A stretch of 64,000 nt of DNA from Haloarcula salinisoli (GTDB lineage Archaea > Halobacteriota > Halobacteria > Halobacteriales > Haloarculaceae), in NCBI RefSeq assembly GCF_019599405.1, contig NZ_RKLQ01000001.1:1612001-1676000 (forward strand), in the 5' to 3' direction. Of this stretch, positions 29,205-47,569 are shown in pieces. Made by a program: the position numbers and the translations under genes. Numbering within the stretch: position 1 is the first letter of the stretch; every line of letters begins with the position of its first letter. Below the pieces are notes generated by a model that saw only the letters and a program-made list of their open reading frames with translations, did no database searches and was not told where the DNA came from.

Positions 29205-29906
29205 TCAGGGTGGCGATGTTTGCTCTATCTGTTCTTGGAGGACACTGAGAAATTCCGGGTTGTAACCCTCATCGACGTGGTTCACATTCCATAATCCTGA
29301 ATCGCGAATTTTCTCGCTTCGGCTGTATTGCCCTAACCATTGTTCTCGTTCATCAATCGGCGTACACTGGTGATTGCTCAGGAGGGCAATCACATTCTGT
29401 TCCAAGTAGGCGCGGTCGCTATCCGGTCCAGGTTCATCATCTACTTTGACCCAAAGGAAAGGCAGATCTCGAATGTAGTCGCTCACTCTCCGCTCCAACT
29501 CTAATTCTGTAAGGCGTTGATCCCGCCCTGCGCTTGACCCTACTCCCCAATCTGAATGCTCACCGTGGAGACCATCGCGCTCAATAATTGCTTCACCAAT
29601 CCGCTTTCTAAAGACTGACCCGCGGTGATTTCCTCCACCTTCGTAGGTACCACGCTGGGCTCCTCGATGGGTCCGAAGTCTGTCCCAAAGAGCTGTCTGT
29701 GACCCTTGCGAAACCGCGTGGGTCCCTACCCGTGTTAACCGTAGTTGCTGACCTCGATATTCGTCTGGTGCGAAAAAGAAATAGATTCCCCGATTGGGCC
29801 AGTCCATATAGCCAGTACACTCTCCAAGTCGTTGCTTGCCACCGACCTGCTCTTCGAGTTCTGAGAGGAGAGCATAGAATCGGTCGATATCATCTGCTCT
29901 TATCAT
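29205..29906 (-). CDS. GIY-YIG-like nuclease, third gene of operon
   Basis: The ATG at 29906 overlaps the stop of the upstream gene (ATGA), fixing the start and giving 233 residues. An N-terminal GIY-YIG fold is visible: GIYFFF at 40-45, RVGTH near 59 (the YIG position) and the catalytic-type Arg in LWDRLRTHRG (near 73-82). The C-terminal part is unassigned. GIY-YIG enzymes cut DNA as single-strand-type nucleases. It is the last of three overlapping genes and may be a nuclease effector. Confidence 0.75.
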   Translation of the reverse strand: MIRADDIDRFYALLSELEEQVGGKQRLGECTGYMDWPNRGIYFFFAPDEYRGQQLRLTRVGTHAVSQGSQTALWDRLRTHRGAQRGTYEGGGNHRGSVFRKRIGEAIIERDGLHGEHSDWGVGSSAGRDQRLTELELERRVSDYIRDLPFLWVKVDDEPGPDSDRAYLEQNVIALLSNHQCTPIDEREQWLGQYSRSEKIRDSGLWNVNHVDEGYNPEFLSVLQEQIEQTSPP

Positions 29907-30331
29907 AGTCGCTCCTTGTACCATGCCTGCTTCTCTCCAATAGCTAAACCTTCGGTAGGTATCTCTATGGTGACTCCTGCGGATTCGATTAGCGGGAGAA
30001 GTTCATCGTAGTAGTCCTTGCCCGCGTGGAGGACCAGCGTAACATCCTCAAAGAGCAATCCCTGCCCATCTAGTTGCTTGGCCACCCTCTCAGCCCACTC
30101 ACGCTTCTTCGCCACTCTTGCACCACTGAGTGTCTCGTCGTAAGGTTCGATAGGGTCTGCGTCAGGATTGATGAGGCCGTGTTTGGCTGAAAGAACCCAC
30201 CACTCGTCGTGGTTTTGCTCTGCGTAGTCTCGCATCTTCTCGAAATAAGGAGACGTGTAGAGATTTCGCGGAGCGTCGGGTTCGTCCCGCTTGGTCTTGA
30301 CACAACTAACGAGGCCAATTTCTTGACTCAT
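29903..30331 (-). CDS. DUF6884 protein (YaaA-like), second gene of operon
   Basis: The ATG at 30331 overlaps the stop of the gene before it (ATGA). 142 residues. The signature VSCVKTKRDEPDAPRNLYTS then WWVLSAKHGLINPD then IEPYDETL is that of DUF6884, related to the YaaA-like DNA-binding proteins. It has no clear catalytic residues of its own. Its own stop overlaps the following GIY-YIG start by four bases. It is probably a DNA-binding or sensor partner in the three-gene unit. Confidence 0.75.
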   Translation of the reverse strand: MSQEIGLVSCVKTKRDEPDAPRNLYTSPYFEKMRDYAEQNHDEWWVLSAKHGLINPDADPIEPYDETLSGARVAKKREWAERVAKQLDGQGLLFEDVTLVLHAGKDYYDELLPLIESAGVTIEIPTEGLAIGEKQAWYKERL

Positions 30332-30930
30332 TCTATAATCTCCCACGTGATGACAGCCCCCTGTTGATGTACTGGATGCCGTAATCCGTCGAAGTGAGCC
30401 ACATTTCTGGTTTCTACCTCGAAATCATACCAGTATTCCACATCAAGGCAGAATTTCTCCCCAATACTTTTCGCACTCATTCGTTCGTATGGCTCATCGG
30501 TCGGTTCGTAGTATAGCCCAAGTAACCCTCCATACTCCTCAAAGTCTGCATCGCGAACCTTTTGAGCGTCGGTCAGCAGTGTCGAAGTCGTTTGCTCGGG
30601 AAAGGGGCTAAATGCTTTGGCAAAGCTGTTCGGGTCGATATTTCCGTTGTCATATCGGAAGCGAAGGAGCTTCGCTTCGACCGGGATTTCTGTCACCCCG
30701 CTCTTGATGAAGAGGTCTACTCGCTGGTCGCCGTTAGGATATGTTCGCTCAGTCTCGATGGAGTAGTTAGTATTATTTTCTACAGCATTTCGGAGCATCT
30801 CGACTTGTCTCTCTTCTTCGAATGGGCCAAGCCCTGGTTGCCAGCGACTATGTTCTGCCTCTGAATCGATTTCAGGTATGGCTTCAGCCAAATCATCTGC
30901 GAGTGATTTTAGTAGTATGCTCGTTTTCAT
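30328..30930 (-). CDS. PD-(D/E)XK nuclease-like, first gene of operon
   Basis: A 200-residue protein. Asp72 in RVDLFIKSG and Glu85-Ala-Lys87 in PVEAKLL form the D-(x)n-E-x-K core of PD-(D/E)XK nucleases. The N-terminal helix region includes FEEERQVEML. The rest is acidic and unassigned. It precedes the DUF6884 gene with a four-base overlap. It is a predicted DNA-cutting enzyme, possibly Mrr- or RecB-like. Confidence 0.75.
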   Translation of the reverse strand: MKTSILLKSLADDLAEAIPEIDSEAEHSRWQPGLGPFEEERQVEMLRNAVENNTNYSIETERTYPNGDQRVDLFIKSGVTEIPVEAKLLRFRYDNGNIDPNSFAKAFSPFPEQTTSTLLTDAQKVRDADFEEYGGLLGLYYEPTDEPYERMSAKSIGEKFCLDVEYWYDFEVETRNVAHFDGLRHPVHQQGAVITWEIIE

Positions 30931-31018
30931 TCTTATAGGTCCAACTGATCCTCTAATTTAATTAGCAGATTTCTGGTTTGGTCCACTCTCATAAGAATTT
31001 GGTTAGCGCGTTATAGGA

Positions 31019-32328: not shown

Positions 32329-32393
32329 CTATGCGTCTGCCTTTCCCGATTGAAAGGTTGGGATTGAATCTGAGGAGAGTAACAATTATTGGT

Positions 32394-34418
32394 ATGTATC
32401 CAGAGTTTACTAAAAAGGTGACGTTGCCCGCCAATTCGAAGTTCCGAGTAGCAAGCGTGTTTTCAGGAGCCGGAGGGCTCGACCTTGGTTTCGCCCTGCC
32501 CTCCATATTTCAAACTGTATTTCACCTCGATAATGATTCGACTGCGATCAGAACACTTCGGGAGAACAAGGAGGAATGGTTCGATGCAGAAGCGACCATC
32601 GTCAATCGGGACATCGTAGAGTTCGTAAAAGAACTCCAGGATGGGACGGCCGAGGCTAACCTTGATGTAGACCCTGACATACTCGTCGGTGGCCCACCTT
32701 GCCAGCCGTTCTCTGCCGCCGCCCGCAGAACGGGGGGTACAAACGGTACAGAGAGTGAGGAGGGACGATTGTTTCTGGCCTACTGCGATTTACTTGAGGA
32801 GTGGGAACCCTCTGCGTTTCTCTTCGAGAACGTCTACGGAATAACCTCAAATGATGAGGATTGGGAACCGATCAAACAAGCCTTCGAAAATGCGGGTTAC
32901 AAGGTGAAACCCAAAACTCTGGACACTGCCGATTATGGTGTTCCTCAACACCGGATAAGAACGTTCATAGTAGGAGTTAGAAAAGAATCGAACCGCGGAT
33001 ACCACTTTCCGAAGCCAACACATGGCCCAGAATCTGACGGGGGGCCTACGCTAAACACAGCCGGAGACGCGTTGTCAGGCCTCACAGTTGACGTGTGTGG
33101 TGATAAGTACTCGATGAATTCGAAACATGCCGACTTGTTGCCAGAAGTTCCTCCAGGCCTCAATTACAGCTTCTTCACTGAGAAGCTGGGCCATCCTAAT
33201 CCAAGATTCGCTTGGAGGTCGAGGTTCTCGGACTTCCTCTACAAGGCGATTCCGAGTGAGCCGGTTAGAACATTAAAAGCTCAACCCGGGGGAGCAAATG
33301 GACCGTTCCATTGGGACAACAGACGTTTCACCGAGTCAGAATTGAAACGATTGCAGTCTTTCCCCGATAATTACCAGTTGGCTGGAAGCTACTCGAAGGT
33401 AGTTAGGCAGATTGGCAATTCAGTCCCGCCAAGGATGGCGTGCGTCCTCGCACGCAGTATGGCTGCGCAACTGTTTGACTGGATTCCGGAAATGGAGTGG
33501 GAAAGTCCCTTCCTTCCGTACCAGTCTCTGTCTGAACGGGCTGTTCCTGATCAACTTTCCGATAATGCCGAACTAAACTTCCGGAGCAGGAAGCGCACTC
33601 CGTTGAAGGTACGTACTCAGCGAGCTCAGAAGCGGCTCGGTGACCGAGCGGAGATTAATAAAGAGGTTGACCCAGAATGGATTACTCCTCGAGAGTATGA
33701 ATTTGATTTGGGGGGCATAATTGAACTACTTGAGGAGGGATCATTTTATGAGGAGTTGCGAGAACGTCAGTATCTAGTAAATTCTCAGGTGGCCAATGGA
33801 ACTCACTCGGTGGATATAACTGGTGTGAATGACACCTCCGGAGGAACGATTGAACTCAAGCTAGTATCCGACGAGGGTTATCTCTTACCTGCTATTGAGG
33901 CTGCTGAAATCAAAGTAGTAGCTGAGGGTGTCGAAGTGCCAGATTTATTCTCGATTTGGGCGGTTCTGATAGAGGACATCAGAGCACGTACTGATTATGA
34001 GCAACTAATGAGTGTTGTCGGGCACTATTCTTGTGCCCCTAGCAATTTCTCAACCCATATCTCGTTCAACGGGATATCTGCAAGCCCATTACGCCAGGTT
34101 GCAGAATTCTTCTCGAGCGAAAACCACTGCAATCGATACTTCACTATCAGTGAAATCGCGGATAGTGCGGGTATACCGCGGCCAGCGCTGGTAAATACAT
34201 TGGAAAAACTGCGGGAACTGCGATACGATATCAGAACCCCCTCTACTCACTCTAACATTCAAAACTCTGAGTCTGGTGCCCCAGAGGTTCTCTGTACATA
34301 TCCATTCCCGAACTTGGTTTCCGCCTCACCATTCGATATGGGTGCCGAGTTGACAGAAATTCGAACTCACATTCAGGAGGACGTACTAACCGGAAAAATG
34401 CCCACCACATCGGAGTAA
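32394..34418 (+). CDS. drmMII: DrmMII, DISARM C5-cytosine DNA methyltransferase
   Basis: The start at 32394 (MYPEF) gives 674 residues. Residues 1-370 are a canonical m5C methylase: motif I FSGAGGLDLGF (23-33), motif IV GGPPCQPFS (nucleophile Cys103), ENV (145-147), QHRIR (185-189) and GNSVPP (341-346). The remaining 300 residues are an extra C-terminal part. One stretch there, Asp474 with Glu487-Leu-Lys489 in TIELKL, looks like a PD-(D/E)XK core, and a winged helix (FTISEIADSAGIPRPALVN) follows near 600. In class 2 DISARM this enzyme marks self-DNA. It is convergent with the other drm genes. Confidence 0.88.
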   Translation: MYPEFTKKVTLPANSKFRVASVFSGAGGLDLGFALPSIFQTVFHLDNDSTAIRTLRENKEEWFDAEATIVNRDIVEFVKELQDGTAEANLDVDPDILVGGPPCQPFSAAARRTGGTNGTESEEGRLFLAYCDLLEEWEPSAFLFENVYGITSNDEDWEPIKQAFENAGYKVKPKTLDTADYGVPQHRIRTFIVGVRKESNRGYHFPKPTHGPESDGGPTLNTAGDALSGLTVDVCGDKYSMNSKHADLLPEVPPGLNYSFFTEKLGHPNPRFAWRSRFSDFLYKAIPSEPVRTLKAQPGGANGPFHWDNRRFTESELKRLQSFPDNYQLAGSYSKVVRQIGNSVPPRMACVLARSMAAQLFDWIPEMEWESPFLPYQSLSERAVPDQLSDNAELNFRSRKRTPLKVRTQRAQKRLGDRAEINKEVDPEWITPREYEFDLGGIIELLEEGSFYEELRERQYLVNSQVANGTHSVDITGVNDTSGGTIELKLVSDEGYLLPAIEAAEIKVVAEGVEVPDLFSIWAVLIEDIRARTDYEQLMSVVGHYSCAPSNFSTHISFNGISASPLRQVAEFFSSENHCNRYFTISEIADSAGIPRPALVNTLEKLRELRYDIRTPSTHSNIQNSESGAPEVLCTYPFPNLVSASPFDMGAELTEIRTHIQEDVLTGKMPTTSE

Positions 34419-34586
34419 ACCAAATGTCGCGTATCTCGCTGACGAGATCGCTCGTCTCGTTCGTCAGTATCCTGCAGGTCACGCAGGGATTCTCTCCTCC
34501 GGACGGGGACCACTTCTCCCACGACCCAGCATAGGACACTCTGTTGACGCACTGATGTGTCTGGGCTGCTTGCTACCTCTGAATCC

Positions 34587-34867
34587 CTATCCGTCGAACC
34601 CGTAGGGGATCAGGCATCGGCTGTCGTCGAAGGCTTCCCTGAACATCGGCTTCTCCACGAAAGTCTTGCTTCGGGCGTTGATTTGCGTCGGCACGTCGTC
34701 GTGGTCCTCAGCCCATTCGCGGATGAACCCCACTCGAGCATATCACACTTCTCGGGAGGGTTGTTCTGGACCACGACGAAGTCTTCACAGGGAGCGATGT
34801 TGTGCCACTTCGGGATCTTGATCCCAGGAGGGAACTGGGCACATTTCAACTGGAGGAATAATTTCAA
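34587..34867 (-). pseudogene. Broken SRAP (YedK/HMCES-like) gene
   Basis: The minus-strand reading gives WHNIAPCEDFVVVQNN and DMLEWG. After a single-base frameshift it continues FIREWAEDHDDVPTQINARS then KTFVEKPMFREAF and RCLIP. The INARxxTxxEKPMFREAF and RCLIP motifs are the SRAP-domain signature. The frame then ends at TAG (34587-34589) in place of the conserved GFYEW. The N-terminal catalytic Cys is also missing. SRAP proteins crosslink abasic sites in single-stranded DNA. This copy is inactive, a remnant between drmMII and drmC. Small hairpins (such as gacgag/ctcgtc at 34441-34456) lie between it and drmMII. Confidence 0.75.
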
Positions 34868-34876
34868 CTACTTAGG

Positions 34877-35764
34877 TTAATCACGATTAGAAGATATCTG
34901 CTTACGATCGAATCCGCCGGCTACTCGTTCGACGTTGTGGAAATGTTCTGAATCCCGAAGCGATTCGAGCAACCCAATTAGTTCCCTGGCGGCAGCTCTT
35001 TCGAACCTAACTCCCAGCTCTAGATTTGAAAGAAAGCCTTGCCCGGTTACGTTTGCAGTTCCGAGATAAGCCTCCTCCTGATCAGTAGCCACGACCTTGG
35101 CATGGAAAGTTGACCAGCTCTCATCGTTGATATATTCATATAGTCTGACGTTGTTACCACAAGGAGAATCTAGCAAATGGTGGGTGAATTCCCGGTTGAA
35201 TTCTCCATCTTGCCCACCATAGGTGAGATATCGCGTTACTAGAGATATCGAACTGCCACGGTCGACTGCTGACAACAATGCAGGTCGCAACCGCTCAAAA
35301 GCTTCAGCAGAAAGAAATGGGCTAACAATCCAGACGTGCGAAGATGCATTCTTGATTATGTCTAATACGCCTGTGAGTAGGTCATTGAAGCCGTCTGTGG
35401 AAAGTGCATCATCGTCAGGAAAGGTTGCTAACAAATCGACAGGGGGTGAGATCTCCTGGCGCTGCTGGAGCAGCTCCGCGGTGTAACCTATTGTCGGGAG
35501 GGCACGAGTTCGTGTACGAACTGCATCTGAACCAATGTATCTGTGATAACGGAGGTGATCGAGCAACTGTTCTAGTTCATGATTAGGAGCCTTGATTTCG
35601 ACTTCGGCGCGCAGGCCATCGACGCTTACATTCGTATTTTGCTGTTGAAGATATCGGAGAGTGGTTCCAACGACTTCGTAGTCGTATGATCCAGAGAGAT
35701 TCAGAAATGCTGACGCCGTTTCAACAAGCAGCTCTCTATCCATCGGTCCGCCATAATCAACCAT
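34877..35764 (-). CDS. drmC: DrmC, DISARM PLD-family nuclease
   Basis: A 295-residue protein with a phospholipase-D-type motif: His221-Ala-Lys223 followed by Asp228 (HAKVVATD), and GTANVTG at 235-241. VWIVSPFLS near 144 is the preceding strand. Only one HKD motif is present, as expected for a dimeric PLD nuclease. It is last in the drmE-drmA-drmB-drmC operon, one base after drmB. DrmC is reported as dispensable for DISARM in some systems. Confidence 0.87.
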   Translation of the reverse strand: MVDYGGPMDRELLVETASAFLNLSGSYDYEVVGTTLRYLQQQNTNVSVDGLRAEVEIKAPNHELEQLLDHLRYHRYIGSDAVRTRTRALPTIGYTAELLQQRQEISPPVDLLATFPDDDALSTDGFNDLLTGVLDIIKNASSHVWIVSPFLSAEAFERLRPALLSAVDRGSSISLVTRYLTYGGQDGEFNREFTHHLLDSPCGNNVRLYEYINDESWSTFHAKVVATDQEEAYLGTANVTGQGFLSNLELGVRFERAAARELIGLLESLRDSEHFHNVERVAGGFDRKQISSNRD

Positions 35765-35765
35765 A

Positions 35766-37775
35766 TTAAATAGAGAGATAGCCGTCTATTTCTTCTCCGT
35801 CGCCCCCAGGTTTCCCTTCGTCAAACGGACCTCCGAAGAGAGTTGCCCGTCCGAGGTTGTGATTCGTATTATCTGTCGACATTGCTGGTAGGTAGAGACA
35901 ATGCTCACAAGCCCCATTTTCGTCCGCATAGCAGACCCGATCGAGAGGGCAGGTTATCTGCTCCTGAAGTTGCGTATGGAACTGATCAAACCGTTCTTCA
36001 AACAGCGATAGCACAGTCCCGAGGGCTTGATCTGTGTCTGGACGTTTGTAGACGAGGAATGAAAGCGTATGCGGCATAAGCCGCTCAACCAAGCTTTCAC
36101 GTTGATGTCCCGATAGGCTCCCCATCGTGTTCATAAATACGTGAGCATAGGTGTTGATCAATGAATAGATATGCCGAGAAATACATTGTCGCTCATTAGT
36201 CAGTAAGTGAGTGCCATCTCGGTCATCCACTAAGCTATCATATCGACCGGGAGCTGCTATACGATCGACGAACCACATTCGAGCATCGTCGGGACTCGGA
36301 CGATTTGCATCCGTGATGACGTTGTTTTCGACCAGCCAGTCTAATACGAGTTCAGGATCTAATTTGACCAATACACCTTCCGCTCTCATTTCTTGGGCGT
36401 AGAACGTTGGGAACGGATCACTCTGTGTCGTGAATGTGTTGAGCTGTAGGTCAACTTGCTCGGAGTCGGAGGTATTGGCCCCGTCAGGATTGTCATTCTG
36501 AGCAGGACTTGCCTCAGTGTCAACAGCATCTCTTACATTTTGGGGTTCAGATTTGACACGTGTGTACCCATAAGTGACCGTTGTCAGTGGGATATCTTCG
36601 ATCAAGTGAAGCTGCTCGATGTTGAGTGAGTTGAGAATTTCACGGTATGACGCTAATGTCGACTCTGTGAGGTGGGTATTCTCCGGAGATTCGATTAGTT
36701 CCTGAACCGAATTCGCTGTATAGTCACCTGTCGGCTGATATTCCTCATTTTTGGTCAGACTCAGAAATTCATAGCATTCCTGTGTAAGACTGGCTTTTTG
36801 TTGATCATCGAAACCGGACCTGTTTTCTAGCCAATCCTTGATATGCCTGCGATGTTCTTCTCTATCTGGGAGGAGTGCCGTTTTTGCTTGCTCTCGTGCG
36901 CGGCGTTCCTCATCCTCATCAGCCAACATGAATTCTTCAGTGCCGCCTAAGAGTTCGGCCGCTTTTTGCTTGATCTCGCTCTCAGTCGGATATTGAATAT
37001 CTGTCGCAAGTACATAGTCACTGATGACCTTCGCACGATACCGGGTTCGATCAATATTCTCTAGTCCTTCCTGAGCATTAACAAAGTCCTCAGACTGAGG
37101 GTAGAAAACGCTCGAGTCAGTGTGGTTCGTGACCATCAGGTCATCATTGTCGCATGACGGGTCTGGGCAGCTCACATCAGTTGCCATAAACGGTATCGAC
37201 TCCGAACAGCCCGGGTGGACACAGTGCCATTCCCAGCTAGACATCCGGGTCGTGGGACGATCCAGTTCCATATTGAGTTCTGTCCCATCATGTGTGTGTG
37301 TCGGGGCCCAGAGTTGGTCTATTGCTCCACATTCACAGATCGCGACGAATGGGAGCTGATCTGTGACCGATAATCTCTTATTACAATTATCACATGAAAA
37401 GAGGCTATCAGTGTCTAGACTTGCAATTTCACGCTCATCATTGTAATCAAATCGAAGAAACATACCACACTGGGAACACTCAAATGTTCTTGGATAGGTA
37501 TGGTAGATAGCACCTCCAGGAACAACGATATCAACGTCATTGTAGAGATCGATGTCGAGTAACTCTTCTGAATTTGGCCATCTGTAGAGATGCTCCTTTA
37601 CCCGCCCTATGAGGAAGTCTTCTGGAGCTTCGAGTTCAACATACTGTCCGGCCTCCGTTCGCCGGTCCACACTCCTGATTCGTCCACTTGCCTGAATTTG
37701 TGCGTGGTTCAGCGTATTTCCCGGAAGAAACTCATACTGGAATTTAGACAGAGAGCGGTCCATGTCTTCAACCAT
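35766..37775 (-). CDS. drmB: DrmB, DISARM DUF1998-type protein
   Basis: A 669-residue protein. The C-terminal CLDRVCYADENGACEHCLY then NHNLGRATLFGG is the DUF1998 signature, found in helicase-associated proteins. The N-terminal third carries Cys pairs for several zinc ribbons (CSQCGMF, CDNCNK, CECGA, CVHPGC, CPDPSC). In known DISARM DrmB forms a complex with DrmA that loads on foreign DNA. The start overlaps the drmA stop by one base, indicating one operon. Confidence 0.85.
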   Translation of the reverse strand: MVEDMDRSLSKFQYEFLPGNTLNHAQIQASGRIRSVDRRTEAGQYVELEAPEDFLIGRVKEHLYRWPNSEELLDIDLYNDVDIVVPGGAIYHTYPRTFECSQCGMFLRFDYNDEREIASLDTDSLFSCDNCNKRLSVTDQLPFVAICECGAIDQLWAPTHTHDGTELNMELDRPTTRMSSWEWHCVHPGCSESIPFMATDVSCPDPSCDNDDLMVTNHTDSSVFYPQSEDFVNAQEGLENIDRTRYRAKVISDYVLATDIQYPTESEIKQKAAELLGGTEEFMLADEDEERRAREQAKTALLPDREEHRRHIKDWLENRSGFDDQQKASLTQECYEFLSLTKNEEYQPTGDYTANSVQELIESPENTHLTESTLASYREILNSLNIEQLHLIEDIPLTTVTYGYTRVKSEPQNVRDAVDTEASPAQNDNPDGANTSDSEQVDLQLNTFTTQSDPFPTFYAQEMRAEGVLVKLDPELVLDWLVENNVITDANRPSPDDARMWFVDRIAAPGRYDSLVDDRDGTHLLTNERQCISRHIYSLINTYAHVFMNTMGSLSGHQRESLVERLMPHTLSFLVYKRPDTDQALGTVLSLFEERFDQFHTQLQEQITCPLDRVCYADENGACEHCLYLPAMSTDNTNHNLGRATLFGGPFDEGKPGGDGEEIDGYLSI

Positions 37776-40700
37776 TATTGCCCACCTCGTACGAGTGCGT
37801 CGAGGAAATCATTTGTGTCGTCGAACGGTCGAACAGACCCTTGATCACCGATGTCCCGTAGGTTACGCATGGGCCCTTCATCCCGAGGAAATCCAGGAGT
37901 ATTCATCTCACTTCCGAGTTCATTGTTCCAGATTGCCCACAGACGCCGTGTTTCCGATTCTAGGTATGTCCGAATATGATTAATAGAACGTGTTGCCGTA
38001 TCAGTCCCGTAGAGCCGTTTAACCATCTCAATAGTCTTTTCTTTGGTGACATCCGGGTATTTCGAATCACGATGCATTATCTCATAGAAGTGATCTGCTG
38101 TCTGAACATTCAATCGCTCTTCTTCGCCATCGTCATTGACGTACATTGATCGCTCTCCATCAGTCGAATCCCAGTAGTATTTTGGACGGTAGTATTGCAG
38201 GAGGATACTCTTGAGAATTCCTGGGAAGGTCTGCTCTGCACCAAATTTGGCCCATCGGTCGATTGCAACCGGCTCAACCGAGCGATCAAGATGCTCATGG
38301 AGTGTCTCAAAGTACTTGTATCGATGGCGGTCTCGCTGATCAAACGGTCTGAAAAAGTCGATAACAAATCCGGGGGTCCCACTGGAGCGTCCGACACGAG
38401 AAGATGCTTGAATATACTGGAAAGTTTGTGATGGATACCCAAAGAAGACCATGAAATTAAATCTGGGATTATCGATACCGTGACCAACAAATGACGTACA
38501 CGGGATAGTGTCAGTCCGGTTTTCGAATTCTTCAGGAGGATCAAGGAGCGTATCAAGTACTCCTGTCCCCTGTGTATCAGCGGTCAATTGTTGGATATTG
38601 AGAGGTCGATTGTAGCCCTCTGAAGCCATTTCATCGGCAATTTGCTTTCCGATGCTATTCCGATATGTGTCCTTCTCGCGCTTATTTGTGAAGTAGACAA
38701 GAGACGTTTCATACTTATCCAGAATATCGGTCTGAGTTTCTGCATCAAATGAGTCTGCCCAATCCGCTTCGTTAACAAGATTATTGATTTTAGATTCTAC
38801 GATCTCGGATTTGGACGTTCCTGAACGGAGACTATACGACGTTTTTATTATATCTCGAACCACCTCTCCTGGAGTCGCGTCCTGGTAGTCCCGAATATTC
38901 TCGTGGTACTGCTTAATAAAGTCAAGAACAGCATAGAGGTGGGTTCGATTGTTCGGTGTGACGCCACCAAACTCTCGCTCGACTTCGCTTTCGCTAAGCT
39001 CACCGTAGTACGTTTCTCGAAGTTCAGGTCCGTCCTGAGGAAAGCGAACTGCGTCCTTCTGGAATAGATTTTGAATCTGGCGTTTGTATTTAGAGATTGT
39101 CGCTGTTGAGGTGAGAACTTTCGGCTCAACCCCACCCTCAATGCTTGGCTCATCTTGGTCTTGCCAAGCACTGGCCAGCTTACAGAATTCCAAGTATGCT
39201 GTTTCGTAGTGGCCGGCAAATGTTCCAAGTTCTTCATTCAACAGATGCACCTCGTCAATGAGGTGGAGAGACGGAATAGGATCAAAATATAGGGCATCCC
39301 GGTCGGCCCTTGTTCCAGGATCTAACTCCGACAGATTGTCCGACTCTTCACAGATATCCTTTTCTGGACATCGATCACTATAACCTGGCCCGTGAACAGA
39401 ACACTGGGAAGTCATATTGCCGAAAATATTCGCAAACCGGGGCTGGAATCCCATGACAGAGACCTTATCAAGAGATCCAAGCAGAACTGATGGTAGATAG
39501 CGATACACGTCATGATCGACGACATAAAGCGGGAGACGCCCAACACAATCATCCCCGGTACAGAAGTGTTCTACTAGATTTCTTGCTTCGTCAAACTCAA
39601 CTCTGACCTCAGAGTTACATAGAGGGCAGGCTGACACAACCTGACAATCATTTCTCACAGCCTGCTGCCGAGATAAATATAGTTTTCTTTTGTCCTCACC
39701 GATAGAATTGGGTGTATCTTGACCCCCGACGAAGAACCCGAGGGAGAACTCATCCCCGATTCCATTCAATCCAAACTCTTCAGAATCTGGTTCGCCGTCC
39801 GCTCGGCGGAACTCTTCTGCAACCAGGAGAGCCTTTAGGAACCGAGATTTCTGCTGAGACGAAAGTAATCTAAGGGGGAATCGGATCCAAGCGGAGACAC
39901 CACGGTCCTTTCCTCGAATACGGTCAAAGAATAGCGTAGTAAGGACAATTCCGAGATATGCCTCTGTTTTCCCACCCCCAGTTGGGAACCATAGTACATC
40001 AGCATCATCGCTGAAGTCTGTTTCGTACTTATTTCGACGGTCTGCAGGATCACGAGCGACAATATCAGGTAGATTAGAAACAATATAAACGAGTTGAAAG
40101 AGCCGCCAACCATCGAATCCTTCATCGGTTGCGAGTTCACTATGGACTCGATGGTTTACTCGATTCATTAACTGGAATGCCCTTTTCGCTTCGTCATCAT
40201 CAGCCAACATCTCAATACCGGCCTCAAAGCGATCGATCTCTACGTCACGGAATGCCTCGGCGTCGTCTTCAAATGCTCTAACTTCTTGAGGGGAATGGGT
40301 TTCCTCGAATTCTGCTTTCCGAGTCCCTGTCCAATCATTGTGATAGCTTCGCATCCCGCGGGCAATCGATCGGAGCGCCTCGATCGTCCCGTTGCCGGTA
40401 GTGCCAGCTAACGTCAAGAAGCGAGTATCATGTGTGTCCCTGAAATCGAATTCATAGACACTCGCTGTAGGGACAGCCGTCGTTTGGAGTTTGAACCATC
40501 CAGTCGGCGCCTCTATGTCACTATCCAACTCTGACGATTTCTCAATAGCCTGGTTACCCACAGAACAGTTGTGACCCTTCGCCCAGACCTCCTGACTAAA
40601 CCGGTAATCTTCCGGGACTAGATCAAGTTCGTACGCTGCTACTGGGCCAGCGACTTCGATGACTGGGTTAAATACACACTCCTCTTTGGGTTCGCGTGCA

Positions 40701-41470
40701 TCTGCATTAGGATCCCAGATCAATTCGGGCGTTCCCTCGCCTCTATGTGGGATGCTGAATCGATCTCCAAATGAGTTGAGTTCCAACCGTAGCCGAAGTT
40801 GATCCTCGGATTTCTCTGCTGTGAACTCGATCGGCCACGTGAGATTGCCGATTGGATGGTGCCGCAGTCGGTCTACTGCATCCTGATAACCGGATTCGGT
40901 GAGATTGTGTAACTCTAAATCACTCTCCTTAGGATCTAAGGTCGTGGTTGTCGGCTGTGTAATCCTACTCGCCTTCTCAAGCGCATCTTCAAGTTCAGCA
41001 TGTAATTGTTGAGTTATTTGGGCTGCATCAGCTTGAAGCGATTCGAGACTGATTTCAGTCTCAAATGCAACATCTACCCGTCGGTAGAACGGGTCATCAA
41101 ACGCATACGAATTCGCACTGCTGTTCTGCCGTTCGGCTGTATCGTCGCCCTCTTCCTCCGTTGCTGTTAGGTCTCGATATTCAGAGTAGGTCGGATAGGT
41201 CTGATAGTAGACTTCAAATTCAAGTAAGATCGGGTACTGCGTGGCAATGGGCTGGAAATCGAGTCCGATGGAATTCGGCTTTATTTCTGCACTCTTCGTA
41301 GATTCTTCGTCGTCACTCGGAGGAGTGAGGTTCGAGATATAGTAAGCCCGCTTGGGTTCCTCGGAGACGCAATATGGTTGATGATGGCCCCGAACTTGCT
41401 GCAGTGTCCGTTCTGCTAATGCAGTCCCAATCGATCGTTCAGCCGTGTTCCCGCCTTTAAAGTTTGACAT
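37775..41470 (-). CDS. drmA: DrmA, DISARM helicase
   Basis: A 1231-residue superfamily 2 helicase. Motif I PTGGGKTE (496-503), DEVH (739-742), STAT (788-791), and motif VI QASSRVGR (1021-1028) are intact. A Cys cluster (about 615-707: CPLC, CTGDDC, CSVHG, CPEKDIC) between motifs I and II would bind zinc. The N-terminal 480 residues are a large domain unlike other helicases. DrmA is the DNA translocase of DISARM. The size agrees with known DrmA (about 1200-1300). It is 12 bases after drmE. Confidence 0.88.
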   Translation of the reverse strand: MSNFKGGNTAERSIGTALAERTLQQVRGHHQPYCVSEEPKRAYYISNLTPPSDDEESTKSAEIKPNSIGLDFQPIATQYPILLEFEVYYQTYPTYSEYRDLTATEEEGDDTAERQNSSANSYAFDDPFYRRVDVAFETEISLESLQADAAQITQQLHAELEDALEKASRITQPTTTTLDPKESDLELHNLTESGYQDAVDRLRHHPIGNLTWPIEFTAEKSEDQLRLRLELNSFGDRFSIPHRGEGTPELIWDPNADAREPKEECVFNPVIEVAGPVAAYELDLVPEDYRFSQEVWAKGHNCSVGNQAIEKSSELDSDIEAPTGWFKLQTTAVPTASVYEFDFRDTHDTRFLTLAGTTGNGTIEALRSIARGMRSYHNDWTGTRKAEFEETHSPQEVRAFEDDAEAFRDVEIDRFEAGIEMLADDDEAKRAFQLMNRVNHRVHSELATDEGFDGWRLFQLVYIVSNLPDIVARDPADRRNKYETDFSDDADVLWFPTGGGKTEAYLGIVLTTLFFDRIRGKDRGVSAWIRFPLRLLSSQQKSRFLKALLVAEEFRRADGEPDSEEFGLNGIGDEFSLGFFVGGQDTPNSIGEDKRKLYLSRQQAVRNDCQVVSACPLCNSEVRVEFDEARNLVEHFCTGDDCVGRLPLYVVDHDVYRYLPSVLLGSLDKVSVMGFQPRFANIFGNMTSQCSVHGPGYSDRCPEKDICEESDNLSELDPGTRADRDALYFDPIPSLHLIDEVHLLNEELGTFAGHYETAYLEFCKLASAWQDQDEPSIEGGVEPKVLTSTATISKYKRQIQNLFQKDAVRFPQDGPELRETYYGELSESEVEREFGGVTPNNRTHLYAVLDFIKQYHENIRDYQDATPGEVVRDIIKTSYSLRSGTSKSEIVESKINNLVNEADWADSFDAETQTDILDKYETSLVYFTNKREKDTYRNSIGKQIADEMASEGYNRPLNIQQLTADTQGTGVLDTLLDPPEEFENRTDTIPCTSFVGHGIDNPRFNFMVFFGYPSQTFQYIQASSRVGRSSGTPGFVIDFFRPFDQRDRHRYKYFETLHEHLDRSVEPVAIDRWAKFGAEQTFPGILKSILLQYYRPKYYWDSTDGERSMYVNDDGEEERLNVQTADHFYEIMHRDSKYPDVTKEKTIEMVKRLYGTDTATRSINHIRTYLESETRRLWAIWNNELGSEMNTPGFPRDEGPMRNLRDIGDQGSVRPFDDTNDFLDALVRGGQ

Positions 41471-41482
41471 TATATTTTATGT

Positions 41483-43828
41483 TTAATCGCTTGTTGACTC
41501 AGTAGTCTGTTGGTTCCCACTTTGGTTAGAAGACGTTTCTAGTTGATCAATGCCTTTGACCGTAAGCCGTTTAGTATCTTCGCGGATTCGCCGCCGAGTT
41601 ACCTCATCATAATATTGGGACTGTGAGCTATCCGTTGTTGCGTCTAACTCATGCTCAATAAGCGGTCGAATTCGTCGGCCAATCTTGTTGTGGCGGTCGC
41701 GAATCCGTTGCGCCGCTTCATTGACATCAGTGGCTAGGGTTTCGAACATACTGGCATCGACGCCAGGTCGGCACAGTTGATAGACTCGCTTGATATCCTC
41801 AGGATCATCAGGCGCGATTGTCTTTCCGTACCGCCAGAGAGTAATCGTGACCGGGGAGGTGATATCCGATCCCATTTCCTGTAGCTGTTGTTGAAATTCC
41901 TTGACTATCCAATTCTCTTGTTCTAAGGTTCGGTTTAGTTGGTCCCTCCAACCTTCAACAAGATCAGTGTCCTCACGAATCCTTTCGCGTTCTTGGGCAT
42001 GATCAATGACAATATCATAGATGTCATCTGCGATATCGTCAATAAGAAGGATCGTATCGCCTCTTTCCAGACTCTTCGCCCGGGTTCGGACGATATCACC
42101 TTCAGCAGGGGAATATTTCGTAACCCGAGAGAGCGGCGTAAGCGTAATTCGCTCGTGGTCCTCCTCGAATGTGAGTTTCAGACGTTCTGACGGCTCCGAT
42201 TCATCATCGCTGTCTGTATTAGCAGGGTTGTTAACGGCCGATTCGTCACTAGACTCCTCCGAATCATTGCCGGCACCCCACAAAGAAGAGCTACTCATCA
42301 ACTGGCTTGCGTCACCCCCATTCGTAGAGTTGGACGCAACTGGGCCTACACTCGTCACTTCAGATTCTATGTCATCCAGATCGATGGGCTCTCCGTCCAA
42401 GCTACCGCCACCAACAGTGTGCTCTTGTTGGGATACAGACTCCCCAGCAAGAGCCCTAGCTCGATGAATAATAAACTGGTTCAGGATTTTGTGATGTACG
42501 AATGCAACAGTCTCACTCCTCGGGAACTCATAATGGTTCGAATCCCGAGGAGCCACCCCAGCGTAGACAGTTCGACTGTCTTTGACTGGATCTATGTCTG
42601 ATTTCGTTGTTAAGACAATATTCTCGGATTCTCCGACCGTGAAATCCCGTTCCTCCGCCGCTAGGATGAACGCTTCCTGGACACGTTTATTGCTGAATAC
42701 AAACCGCGTGGGATTGTCTTGTTCCCGTGCCCGCTCCACTGCATTCAAGAGATAGTTTTGAAGTGGTTGCTCGTCGTTCAGGGTTGCTTCTAACTGGGTA
42801 GCTGTCTCAGTGAAGTTACGGATTCGACCACCACCATGACTAATTTGTTCTGCGATTAGATTCAGACGGTCGACTTGCTGCGGAATGGAGTCAAAGTATC
42901 CGTGGGACTTGCTCACGCGATTCCAGTATTTTGGCTTGACTGGCAATTGGGTTAACCGGTTATATAATCCGCCAACAACTTTGGGGGCAATATTTCGTTC
43001 CTGTAGTTCGATTTTCTTAGCAGCGAACTGTCGATGGAGATGGTCTACTTCTTCAGCGATGATACTATAGTAATCGTATGAGACGTCACCCACAGCAAGA
43101 AGATTCTCAATAATCGCTAATTTTGTGTCCAGGTTGACGGGTATCGACTCTATCGGAGAAGACTCTAGGTGAGTCGGGCGTATCTGAATCTGCTCGTCAG
43201 AGTGAGTCCGAGCTAGGTCATATCCCATTCCGTAGCCATCGGAGTCCCCAATAAATGCAACCCGTCCTTTCCCTGCAGCCGCGAACAGCTCTACTAATTG
43301 CCGTGCATATGTATCATGCCAACGCGGCGCTCGCAGGTCGATGATTATCCCTGCTGGGAGGGGTGTCCCGGATTCAATATCGAAATTAAACTGGCTATTA
43401 GCGGTGAAAATCCCCCAGCGGTTTTCCATCTCTGATAAAGAATTCACCACATAACGGGGAACGGGATCACTTCCCTCCTTGTACGTCGGGTTTGTCGTAT
43501 CCCGATAGTGGAACCGGTCAAAAACGGTTGTATACCCTTGGCGGGGAAAAAGAAGAACAGGGAAGTTGCCACCACCACGATTGGGATGCTCGTCAAAAGC
43601 AAGAGCTACTGCCAGTCCAACCGGAATTGAATTTGAAGGGAACGAAGTCTCGATCAGGATACTCTCTTCAGATTCGATGTTTCTGACTGCACGCTCTGTC
43701 ACTGCAGCTTCCACAGGGGAGAGCGTAAACCGATCACCGTCGACTCGGATATTTCCAGCCTGAAAGCCAGCAAGAGCTCCGCGAGAATAGCACTCACTCG
43801 CAAGGGATCCAATATTTTCAGGATCCAT
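41483..43828 (-). CDS. drmE: DrmE, class 2 DISARM protein
   Basis: A 781-residue protein at the head of the drm operon. There is no domain I can name, but the size, the gene order drmE-drmA-drmB-drmC and the m5C partner all match class 2 DISARM. Visible segments are FIGDSDGYG near 196, FVFSNKRVQEAFILA near 375 (a strand-helix like a helicase second RecA domain), a Ser/Asp-rich linker (about 475-550), and an RGDTILLIDDIADDIYDIVID segment near 592-612. Reading as a degenerate helicase-like fold is inference. Confidence 0.8.
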   Translation of the reverse strand: MDPENIGSLASECYSRGALAGFQAGNIRVDGDRFTLSPVEAAVTERAVRNIESEESILIETSFPSNSIPVGLAVALAFDEHPNRGGGNFPVLLFPRQGYTTVFDRFHYRDTTNPTYKEGSDPVPRYVVNSLSEMENRWGIFTANSQFNFDIESGTPLPAGIIIDLRAPRWHDTYARQLVELFAAAGKGRVAFIGDSDGYGMGYDLARTHSDEQIQIRPTHLESSPIESIPVNLDTKLAIIENLLAVGDVSYDYYSIIAEEVDHLHRQFAAKKIELQERNIAPKVVGGLYNRLTQLPVKPKYWNRVSKSHGYFDSIPQQVDRLNLIAEQISHGGGRIRNFTETATQLEATLNDEQPLQNYLLNAVERAREQDNPTRFVFSNKRVQEAFILAAEERDFTVGESENIVLTTKSDIDPVKDSRTVYAGVAPRDSNHYEFPRSETVAFVHHKILNQFIIHRARALAGESVSQQEHTVGGGSLDGEPIDLDDIESEVTSVGPVASNSTNGGDASQLMSSSSLWGAGNDSEESSDESAVNNPANTDSDDESEPSERLKLTFEEDHERITLTPLSRVTKYSPAEGDIVRTRAKSLERGDTILLIDDIADDIYDIVIDHAQERERIREDTDLVEGWRDQLNRTLEQENWIVKEFQQQLQEMGSDITSPVTITLWRYGKTIAPDDPEDIKRVYQLCRPGVDASMFETLATDVNEAAQRIRDRHNKIGRRIRPLIEHELDATTDSSQSQYYDEVTRRRIREDTKRLTVKGIDQLETSSNQSGNQQTTESTSD

Positions 43829-44156: not shown

Positions 44157-45068
44157 TCAAGACTCGAATCCGTGGAGTTCTCGATGACCTTCGATCACCT
44201 GCTGATCCGGCACTTTGTCGAGGCTTTTGGGTTCTAACAGTTGATTCCCTGCAAGAGATGCAACTTCCTCAGGAAGTTCACGCTCCGACCATTCGTTCAC
44301 GGTCACGGTTCTATCGTCGGTTAGGCTGAACCACCCCGAGTCGAACGCCCAATGGTGGAGTTTACAGAGTGCGATTCCGTTCCGTACATCGTCGTCGCCG
44401 CCTTCCGACTTCGGATAGATGTGAGCGGCTTCTACTTCCGGATGCCCTGTTGGAGTTCGTCGAGACTGACCACAAACCGCACACGTGTAGTCATACTGCT
44501 GCTTCACTTCACGAGCAAAGGTGGTCGATCTCACTCGACGTCTACTTTCGGTATACTCGGGATCGTTGTCGATTAATAAAGGTGAGTCCTCATCTGGGTC
44601 GCTCACTTCCTCAGCCATTTCCTGGTACTCCTCCCAACTTGCTACCCCGAGCTTCTGCAGTTCGAACTTGTAGACCATCCGCGAACCGTCGCTCACATAC
44701 CTGTAATTTTGAACGTCGACGAGGCCCTCGTATTCGTACTCGTCGACCCCTTCCTCACTTGTGAACAGATAGATGGGACGCAACTCAGATTCCGCCTCGA
44801 TGAGCGCTCCGTTCGCATAGTCTGATGATTGGTCCCCCTTTTCCTCCTTACCCTCACCTTCGTAGATCAGTGTTCCATCGTCACGGTGTTGATCGTCGTA
44901 GATTTCCCCCGCATTAGAATTCAGGATGATAAATTTCCCCTCATCGCGAGTGCGGGGCGTTATTCCTTTGAACTGAAACCCGAAGTTCGCGCTAAAAACG
45001 TCGTCTACCTCTTCTTGAGACAGCCTTTCACCAATTTCTAATGGCCAGGATAGTGCAAAATCCACCAT
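44157..45068 (-). CDS. HNH endonuclease with SRA-like N-terminal domain
   Basis: A 303-residue protein. The C-terminal HNH domain has Cys196-x2-Cys199, the catalytic His216 in EAAHIYPKSEGG, Asn230, Cys235 and His238-His239. The N-terminal 140 residues carry TLIYEGEGKEEKGDQ and ANGALIEA then RPIYLF then YEYEGLVDV. This pattern is that of SRA-type modified-base readers found in McrA-like and related restriction proteins. The combination predicts a modification-dependent nuclease, which would be odd beside an m5C methylase. It lies upstream of drmE, with a separate promoter region between them. Confidence 0.78.
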   Translation of the reverse strand: MVDFALSWPLEIGERLSQEEVDDVFSANFGFQFKGITPRTRDEGKFIILNSNAGEIYDDQHRDDGTLIYEGEGKEEKGDQSSDYANGALIEAESELRPIYLFTSEEGVDEYEYEGLVDVQNYRYVSDGSRMVYKFELQKLGVASWEEYQEMAEEVSDPDEDSPLLIDNDPEYTESRRRVRSTTFAREVKQQYDYTCAVCGQSRRTPTGHPEVEAAHIYPKSEGGDDDVRNGIALCKLHHWAFDSGWFSLTDDRTVTVNEWSERELPEEVASLAGNQLLEPKSLDKVPDQQVIEGHRELHGFES

Positions 45069-47494: not shown

Positions 47495-47516
47495 AAGCCG
47501 GTGGAGGGATTTGAAC
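47495..47516 (+). other. attR, within tRNA-Thr
   Basis: The 22 bases match attL at 22046 with one difference. They cover the 3' end of the tRNA-Thr gene, so integration here leaves the tRNA intact. Confidence 0.85.
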
Positions 47517-47569
47517 CCTCGGCCTAATCCTTACGAAGGATTCGCTCTGCCAGTCTGAGCTACACCGGC
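47496..47569 (-). tRNA. tRNA-Thr (anticodon CGU)
   Basis: A 74-base gene on the minus strand. The acceptor stem GCCGGTG pairs perfectly with CACCGGC, followed by discriminator T (47496). The D stem is GCTC/GAGC, the anticodon stem AATCC/GGATT has loop TTCGTAA (anticodon CGT), and the T stem GAGGG/CCCTC encloses TTCAAAT. CCA is not encoded. It decodes ACG (Thr). The gene is complete, and its 3' end is the attachment site of the element. Confidence 0.95.

What the first reader, a model, noticed from the sequence alone, without database searches (positions are those of the whole stretch)
29205..30930. Three-gene nuclease operon: PD-(D/E)XK, DUF6884, GIY-YIG
Three genes overlap by four bases each (ATGA) on the minus strand. 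The first and third carry different nuclease folds, and the middle one is a DUF6884 protein of unknown role. An RHH-type regulator lies upstream. Such strict coupling in a defence island, with two nucleases and a possible recognition protein, looks like an undescribed anti-virus or anti-plasmid system.
Basis: partly seen in the sequence, partly recalled or inferred. Interest (0 to 1): 0.8.

Follow-up and report, generated by a model that had tools for sequence, protein, structure and literature searches.

The report
DUF6884 operon with two predicted nucleases
A salt-loving archaeon carries a tightly coupled three-gene operon, two predicted DNA cutters around a protein of a family tied to an unusual guanine base (7-deazaguanine), which may be a restriction system that detects viral DNA disguised with that base.

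Summary
The operon is real: three minus-strand genes (30930-29205), each overlapping the next by ATGA, in a low-GC island beside DISARM. Gene 2 (DUF6884) and gene 3 already match the PADLOC candidate pair PDC-M57A/B; gene 1 matched no family library searched. Gene 1 has an invariant E/D/ExK signature (36 of 36) but fold searches were inconclusive. Gene 3 is GIY-YIG by motif only. The exact trio was found contiguous only here in 391 haloarchaeal genomes, but gene 1 - DUF6884 - GIY-YIG recurs in six other loci with two other GIY-YIG families, and in one genome an SRA-HNH-like protein takes the DUF6884 slot. DUF6884 looks like a hub: in 47 of its 62 best-scoring loci a predicted nuclease or AGOG glycosylase lies within 300 bp. 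A divergent DUF6884 sits by DpdA-like guanine transglycosylases in 42 of 42 loci examined and by DpdA in virus HRTV-29; a DUF6884::M57B fusion lies by QueC. Genomes with DUF6884-nuclease loci (45) and with DpdA-like genes (43) do not overlap (4.95 expected; P 0.004, not corrected for kinship). Best reading: restriction in which DUF6884 reads modified guanine, probably 7-deazaguanine, and its partners cut. No activity has been tested.

The parts
30328..30930 (-). Gene 1: 200-aa predicted PD-(D/E)XK-type protein, in no family of Pfam, PADLOC, PHROGs or NCBIfam at the limits used
   Evidence: 0 families each; invariant E39/Q42/D72/E85-x-K87/R90 in 36 of 36; AlphaFold pLDDT 76.7, pTM 0.82
29903..30331 (-). 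Gene 2: DUF6884 (PF21818; PADLOC PDC-M57A), 142 aa, start ATG in the ATGA overlap
   Evidence: PF21818 E 1.6e-42; PDC-M57A E 2.3e-33; C10, K14, S48, A49, G104, Y107 identical in 48 of 48
29205..29906 (-). Gene 3: PDC-M57B family, 233 aa, GIY-YIG-like by motif (G40-I-Y42, V60-G61, R76/R78/H80, E169, N171)
   Evidence: PDC-M57B E 1.8e-71; motif residues at least 95% conserved in 38 homologues
30328..30331 (-). ATGA stop/start overlap, gene 1 to gene 2
   Evidence: the same overlap in 4 of 6 operons examined
29903..29906 (-). ATGA stop/start overlap, gene 2 to gene 3
   Evidence: the same overlap in 6 of 6 operons examined
30956..30961 (-). TATA-like TTAAAT about 28 nt before the gene 1 ATG, a possible promoter of a leaderless transcript (read by eye, inference)
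   Evidence: sequence

Best explanation
The operon is a three-subunit restriction system. DUF6884 (gene 2) is the specificity subunit: its YaaA-like fold, with an invariant Cys and Lys, flips out and recognises a modified guanine in incoming DNA, most likely a 7-deazaguanine (preQ0, preQ1, ADG or archaeosine type) that viruses use to evade ordinary restriction enzymes. Gene 3 (GIY-YIG-like) and gene 1 (PD-(D/E)XK-like) are cutters recruited by it. Shown here: gene layout, conservation, exchange of partners, a fusion of genes 2 and 3, linkage of DUF6884 to guanine-modifying genes, and no overlap with DpdA-like genes in the sample. Inferred: recognition of 7-deazaguanine, cutting, antiviral effect, and that the three proteins act together.
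For: (1) Coupling: ATGA between DUF6884 and the GIY-YIG gene in 6 of 6 operons and between gene 1 and DUF6884 in 4 of 6. (2) Gene 1 - DUF6884 - GIY-YIG occurs in 7 of 52 gene-1 loci, the window included, with three different GIY-YIG families; two of the seven have a broken gene. In one well supported DUF6884 clade of 8 (97/92) the partner is M57B, c1 or c4, with or without gene 1. (3) Hub: 47 of the 62 best-scoring DUF6884 loci have, within 300 bp, a GIY-YIG type (32), gene 1 (7), a PD-(D/E)XK-like type by motif (9), HNH (3) or AGOG/AGOG-like glycosylase (6), some more than one; hit density within 1.5 kb 0.368 per kb against 0.018 further away in the same loci. (4) DUF6884::M57B fusion beside QueC on an IMG/VR contig. 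(5) Slot exchange: in Haloglomus irregulare an SRA-HNH-like protein, 43% identical to the window's own SRA-HNH, lies between gene 1 and the GIY-YIG gene. (6) 7-deazaguanine link: DUF6884 within 1 kb of a DpdA-like TGT in 42 of 42 loci, with an ArcS-like TGT+DUF5591 protein, and a QueD-like protein in one locus read; beside DpdA in HRTV-29; in dpdC by a paper's annotation (PMC11888242, passages). (7) 45 genomes with DUF6884-nuclease loci and 43 with DpdA-like genes: 0 shared, 4.95 expected, P 0.0038. (8) Targets exist: HVTV-1, grown on Haloarcula vallismortis, has about 30% of G as dPreQ1 (PMC6884629, passages).
Against: Gene 3's nuclease identity is motif-level only and gene 1's fold search is inconclusive. 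The partner families in (3) were largely defined from the same neighbourhoods, so 47 of 62 is partly circular; 10 of the 62 have neither such a partner nor a TGT. The DUF6884 beside TGT is a divergent clade, so its base need not be that of the nuclease-linked clade. The exclusion test is not corrected for kinship; gene 1 alone shows none (4 shared, 4.95 expected, P 0.43) and M57B alone a weaker one (5 shared, 10.45 expected, P 0.026). 86 of 101 M57B hits are not within 300 bp of a listed DUF6884, and 30 of 52 gene-1 loci had none of the modelled partners within 1.5 kb. AGOG acts on 8-oxoguanine (recalled), which would fit damage as well as 7-deazaguanine. Several bacterial plasmid and phage DUF6884 genes have no annotated nuclease beside them.
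Confidence: 0.42

Rival explanations
1. Lesion or base-excision module: DUF6884 finds damaged or wrongly inserted bases (abasic sites, ribonucleotides, oxidised guanine), and the nucleases or AGOG cut there, in repair or in attack on damaged invading DNA.
For: Pfam's authors report that the DUF6884 protein YfjM was found among interactors of abasic and ribonucleotide lesions and model base flipping (PMC11701544, passages); AGOG-type glycosylase genes lie beside DUF6884 in six of 62 loci.
Against: Patchy distribution, island setting and repeated partner exchange are unlike housekeeping repair; the TGT linkage in 42 of 42 loci and the virus DpdA neighbour point to a modified base.
Confidence: 0.2
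2. Only genes 2 and 3 (PDC-M57) form the unit; gene 1 is an independent, mobile nuclease-like gene that happens to lie upstream.
For: Gene 1 is without any modelled partner within 1.5 kb in 30 of 52 loci; DUF6884 with M57B occurs without gene 1 in 14 of 62 loci and fused without gene 1 nearby in L221.
Against: Gene 1 lies directly upstream of DUF6884 in 9 of 52 loci, and overlaps by ATGA in 4 of 6 operons; it also overlaps or abuts c4 GIY-YIG genes directly on plasmids.
Confidence: 0.18
3. A classical restriction-modification system: DUF6884 helps to modify host DNA (as DpdC-like enzyme) and the nucleases cut unmodified DNA.
For: DpdC carries a DUF6884 match by a paper's annotation, and DUF6884 sits in the haloarchaeal DpdA-like cluster.
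Against: No DpdA-like match at E 1e-30 in the window's own genome and no overlap of the two gene sets in 391 genomes.
Confidence: 0.08
4. A mobile-element helper or toxin-antitoxin-like module with no role against viruses.
For: Homologues are often on plasmids, and some lie near integrase-like genes.
Against: Defence-island setting and PADLOC's independent listing of the pair as a defence candidate.
Confidence: 0.12

Closest known systems
PDC-M57 (PADLOC-DB defence candidate, genes M57A + M57B)
   Same: Genes 2 and 3 match both models strongly; the pair recurs and exists as a fusion.
   Different: Gene 1 is not in the PADLOC library searched; candidate only, and I found no paper with the name.
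Type IV / modification-dependent restriction (SRA-HNH, AspBHI, MspJI, GmrSD)
   Same: Proposed logic: a base reader plus exchangeable nucleases; an SRA-HNH-like protein takes the DUF6884 slot in Haloglomus.
   Different: Known readers cited in the passages target modified cytosine, adenine or phosphorothioate; here the proposed reader is DUF6884 and the proposed base a guanine. A 2017 paper asks whether a dG+-specific enzyme exists (PMC5567051, passages).
Dpd 7-deazaguanine DNA modification islands
   Same: Share the DUF6884 family (DpdC); haloarchaeal DpdA-like loci carry DUF6884.
   Different: No DpdA-like gene in this genome at E 1e-30; here DUF6884 is with nucleases.
YaaA / B. subtilis YfjM (DUF6884 and PF03883)
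   Same: Family and, by the Pfam paper, fold.
   Different: Those are described for oxidative stress or lesions, not in nuclease operons.

Membership tests
DUF6884 (PF21818) | Match over Pfam's gathering score | tested here: met
   145.3 bits against 30
DUF6884 (PF21818) | CxxxK and LSAxxG motifs named by Pfam (PMC11701544) | tested here: met
   Gene 2 has CVKTK and LSAKHG. Among 48 haloarchaeal members C10, K14, S48, A49 are 48 of 48, but G52 only 21
PDC-M57 | Both M57A and M57B present side by side | tested here: met
   E 2.3e-33 and 1.8e-71, overlapping genes; PADLOC's own system rule was not available
PD-(D/E)XK nucleases | Conserved D and ExK on a beta hairpin, with an upstream helix Glu | tested here: met
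   36 of 36 sequences; E39 at the start of helix 40-52, D72 before strand 73-77, E85/K87 in strand 80-89
PD-(D/E)XK nucleases | Fold match to known members | tested here: inconclusive
   Best rows include MspJI (E 0.23), R.SwaI (Z 5.2), EcoRV (Z 4.5) among unrelated folds of equal score
PD-(D/E)XK nucleases | Metal-dependent DNA cleavage | not testable with these tools
   needs protein
GIY-YIG nucleases | GIY and YIG motifs, catalytic Arg and Glu | tested here: inconclusive
   GVY, [IV]G, RLRxH, ExN at least 95% conserved in 38 homologues, but Arg stands where Tyr of YIG is usual; profile alignment in register at only 9% probability
GIY-YIG nucleases | Pfam PF01541 match or fold | tested here: inconclusive
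   No PF01541 match for gene 3 (not among 3 matches in the genome); model unusable
Type IV restriction | Cuts modified, not unmodified, DNA | not testable with these tools
   needs assay; genomic exclusion with DpdA-like genes is only indirect
Dpd system | DpdA (TGT-like) present | tested here: not met
   No match at E 1e-30 in G000
DISARM | Triad genes are DISARM components | tested here: not met
   None of the three matches a Drm model; the neighbouring genes do

The most novel reading that the evidence does not exclude
DUF6884 is a general reader of 7-deazaguanine-type bases in DNA. Haloarchaea plug it into interchangeable cutters (three GIY-YIG families, PD-(D/E)XK, HNH, AGOG glycosylase), which gives the first family of restriction systems aimed at 7-deazaguanine-protected viruses, while viruses and Dpd islands use relatives of the same protein to make the modification.
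Probability: 0.35. Interest if true: 0.88.

Novelty: new variant of a known kind. Interest (0 to 1): 0.7.

Why it matters
Viruses with 7-deazaguanine in their DNA resist most restriction enzymes tested (PMC6884629 and PMC5567051, passages), and the 2017 paper asked whether hosts have enzymes specific for that base. This operon and its relatives give concrete, small candidates with a suitable virus of the same genus, and would give DUF6884, now 'unknown function', a role. They could also be tools for mapping 7-deazaguanine in DNA.

Tried and rejected
RHH as part of the system: dropped, not found with gene 1 elsewhere. Triad as part of DISARM: dropped. Gene 1 against PDB sequences: two matches at E 0.16 or worse, ignored; gene 3 and DUF6884 likewise nothing useful (110 for the c1 family). 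Viral contigs: no relative of gene 1, none with the single proteins of genes 2 and 3; with alignments, one M57B relative and seven DUF6884 relatives, of which only HRTV-29 (L222) lay by a DpdA that I knew of; the others were not classified further. AlphaFold of gene 3 with two sequences failed, so no fold search was run on it. In the fold search the families not listed are not excluded. PD-(D/E)XK for the k3 family is by eye (PDLL...IEAK), Pfam finds nothing. SRA in the Haloglomus protein is inferred: Pfam gives only HNH for it, and the window relative's SAD_SRA score is 30.6, just under the 30.7 cut-off. Tree bootstrap had not settled, and two long branches met. One DpdA-like genome of 43 (G237) was not fetched; the DUF6884 profile used there included three TGT- or virus-linked seeds. 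L053/L203 are one record counted twice (52 includes it twice). Paper searches: DUF6884 gave 2 papers, PDC-M57 none, GIY-YIG with YaaA and restriction none, GIY-YIG with haloarchaea and defence system none; preprints and subscription papers are mostly not held.

Full report
Observation. On the minus strand lie gene 1 (30930-30328), gene 2 (30331-29903) and gene 3 (29906-29205), with ATGA at both junctions. Gene 2 is DUF6884. PADLOC labels gene 2 PDC-M57A and gene 3 PDC-M57B; gene 1 has no match in Pfam, PADLOC, PHROGs or NCBIfam at the limits used. A TATA-like TTAAAT lies about 28 nt before gene 1 (by eye). The DUF7386 RHH gene is 212 bp upstream and was not found with gene 1 elsewhere.

Setting. 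The window is in a haloarchaeal genome; relatives labelled same genus include the loci that match Haloarcula japonica and Haloarcula sebkhae contigs, so Haloarcula is the likely genus. GC is 48-52% over roughly 24-46 kb against 61-69% in the flanks, with tRNA-Thr at 47496-47569. A DISARM locus lies next to the operon: a cytosine methyltransferase at 32331 and DrmC, DrmB, DrmA, DrmE on the other strand, then an SRA-HNH protein.

Are they nucleases? Gene 1: E39, Q42, D72, E85, K87 and R90 are identical in 36 of 36 sequences (alignment). The model (pLDDT 76.7, pTM 0.82) puts D72 and E85-x-K87 on a beta hairpin after a helix carrying E39, which is the PD-(D/E)XK pattern. Foldseek's best row is the modification-dependent enzyme MspJI but at E 0.23; VIA-align gives R.SwaI Z 5.2 and EcoRV Z 4.5 among unrelated folds with the same scores: not a confirmation. 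Gene 3: conserved GVY, [IV]G, RLRxH and ExN in 38 homologues, aligned in register to GIY-YIG domains at only 9% probability (0.7%), no PF01541 match, and a failed model. I therefore call it GIY-YIG-like.

Is the trio conserved? Gene 1 relatives occur in 45 of 391 Halobacteria genomes, M57B in 95, DUF6884 in 225. Of 52 gene-1 loci (one record counted twice), DUF6884 lies directly downstream in 9, and a GIY-YIG gene follows in 7; 10 others have a GIY-YIG gene nearby without DUF6884; 30 have none of the modelled partners within 1.5 kb. Only the window has M57B in the third place; elsewhere it is a double GIY-YIG protein (c1; PF01541 E 1.2e-6) or a c4-type protein (PF01541 E 0.016, under cut-off; motifs). 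Named examples are Halobellus salinus and Haloarcula japonica (c4) and Natrialba aegyptia (c1, broken). ATGA couples DUF6884 to the GIY-YIG gene in 6 of 6 operons examined and gene 1 to DUF6884 in 4 of 6. On the DUF6884 tree the window falls in a clade of 8 (97/92) whose members are linked to c4, c1 or M57B, nearest to a c4-linked copy at 82% identity: the third gene has been exchanged. Gene 1 also directly follows c4 GIY-YIG genes on plasmids of Salinigranum rubrum and Halomarina.

DUF6884 as a hub. I took the 62 best-scoring DUF6884 hits and read their surroundings. In 47 of 62 a modelled partner lies within 300 bp: M57B 15, c1 9, c4 8, PD-(D/E)XK-like k3 9, HNH 3, gene 1 7, AGOG 4, AGOG-like 2, with some loci holding more than one. 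AGOG is a Pfam call (PF09171, E 1.7e-27 and 2.3e-27; the two AGOG-like proteins are under the cut-off). Five more are the TGT-linked loci, and ten have neither. The density of partner hits is 0.368 per kb within 1.5 kb and 0.018 beyond it in the same loci. These partner families were mostly found by reading the same loci, so the 47 is partly circular. Outside haloarchaea, DUF6884 precedes an HNH gene on a Burkholderia ambifaria plasmid and an M57B-like stretch, in two tblastn pieces, on a Deinococcus plasmid, but stands without an annotated nuclease in other plasmids and phages. In an IMG/VR contig DUF6884 and M57B are one protein, next to QueC and followed by SIR2 and nucleoside deoxyribosyltransferase genes. 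In Haloglomus irregulare an SRA-HNH-like protein occupies the place between gene 1 and the c1 gene, with ATGA to the latter.

Link to guanine modification. A DpdA-like TGT (PF01702) is in 43 of 391 genomes at E 1e-30; in 42 of the 42 loci examined a DUF6884 gene lies within 1 kb, 41 on the same strand, worst E 7.1e-14. In the loci read more closely there are also a second TGT, in one case with DUF5591 as in ArcS (recalled architecture), a GHKL ATPase, HerA, and in one locus a QueD-type PTPS protein. One of these DUF6884 proteins also matches YaaA over the cut-off and DUF5591 weakly (E 0.006). Halorubrum tailed virus 29 has DUF6884 overlapping its DpdA gene, and a paper infers that this virus uses host preQ0 (PMC8651126, passages). 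DpdC is annotated with DUF6884 (PMC11888242, passages). The Pfam paper gives the YaaA-like fold, the two motifs, and a base-flipping model (PMC11701544, passages).

Test of the idea. If DUF6884-nuclease units attack 7-deazaguanine DNA, they should avoid genomes with DpdA. Of 391 genomes, 45 have a DUF6884-nuclease or AGOG locus among the 62 and 43 a DpdA-like gene; none has both (4.95 expected, P 0.0038, not corrected for kinship; both sets are spread over families f1, f3 and f4). Controls: gene 1 alone 4 shared (4.95 expected, P 0.43), M57B alone 5 shared (10.45 expected, P 0.026). So the signal belongs to the DUF6884-linked units, which is what the idea predicts, but it is one modest test.

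Mechanism proposed. DUF6884 flips and inspects guanine positions; a 7-deazaguanine, perhaps through its nitrile or aminomethyl group meeting the invariant Cys10/Lys14, fixes it in place (by analogy with the thioimide of QueF, named in the abstract of PMC5372742 seen); the bound complex then lets the GIY-YIG-like and PD-(D/E)XK-like proteins cut. Steps shown: layout, conservation, exchange, linkage. Steps inferred: binding, base identity, cutting, protection. Viruses of this genus carry the base: HVTV-1, about 30% of G as dPreQ1 (PMC6884629, passages). Against it stand the rivals listed, above all lesion recognition.

Novelty. The two-gene core is a listed, unvalidated candidate (PDC-M57; the archaeal survey PMC12988326 describes PDCs as candidates from guilt by embedding and has no occurrence of M57, passages). 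New here: gene 1 and the triad, the exchangeable partners, the slot exchange with an SRA-HNH-like protein, and the 7-deazaguanine link. I rate it a new variant of a known kind.

Noticed in passing
window 32331-43828: DISARM locus: cytosine methyltransferase (+) and DrmC, DrmB, DrmA, DrmE (-).
   Followed up: partly
window 44157-45068 (-): SRA-HNH protein (HNH_2; SAD_SRA just under cut-off) next to DISARM; relatives lie beside gene 1 in L057, L061, L073, L079 and L212.
   Followed up: partly
window about 24000-46000, tRNA-Thr at 47496: Low-GC island (48-52% against 61-69%) ending near a tRNA gene.
   Followed up: no
L254, L238, L267 and 39 similar loci: Haloarchaeal cluster with DUF6884, DpdA-like TGT, GHKL ATPase and a second, partly ArcS-like TGT; looks like an archaeal Dpd-type DNA modification locus (only three loci read closely).
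   Followed up: partly
L221:3911-7908: QueC, DUF6884::M57B fusion, SIR2/AAA protein and nucleoside deoxyribosyltransferase in a row on an IMG/VR contig.
   Followed up: partly
L145, L146, L147, L148, L168, L181: AGOG or AGOG-like DNA glycosylase genes beside DUF6884.
   Followed up: partly
L211:6226-7467: AspBHI-type modification-dependent enzyme (RE_AspBHI_N + Mrr_cat) just upstream of the triad in Halobellus salinus.
   Followed up: no
L001 / L082 (own genome, contig C5): A second DUF6884 gene, with a c4 GIY-YIG gene 742 bp away on the other strand.
   Followed up: no
Several gene-1 and M57B copies carry stops or are split, as often seen for accessory genes.
   Followed up: no
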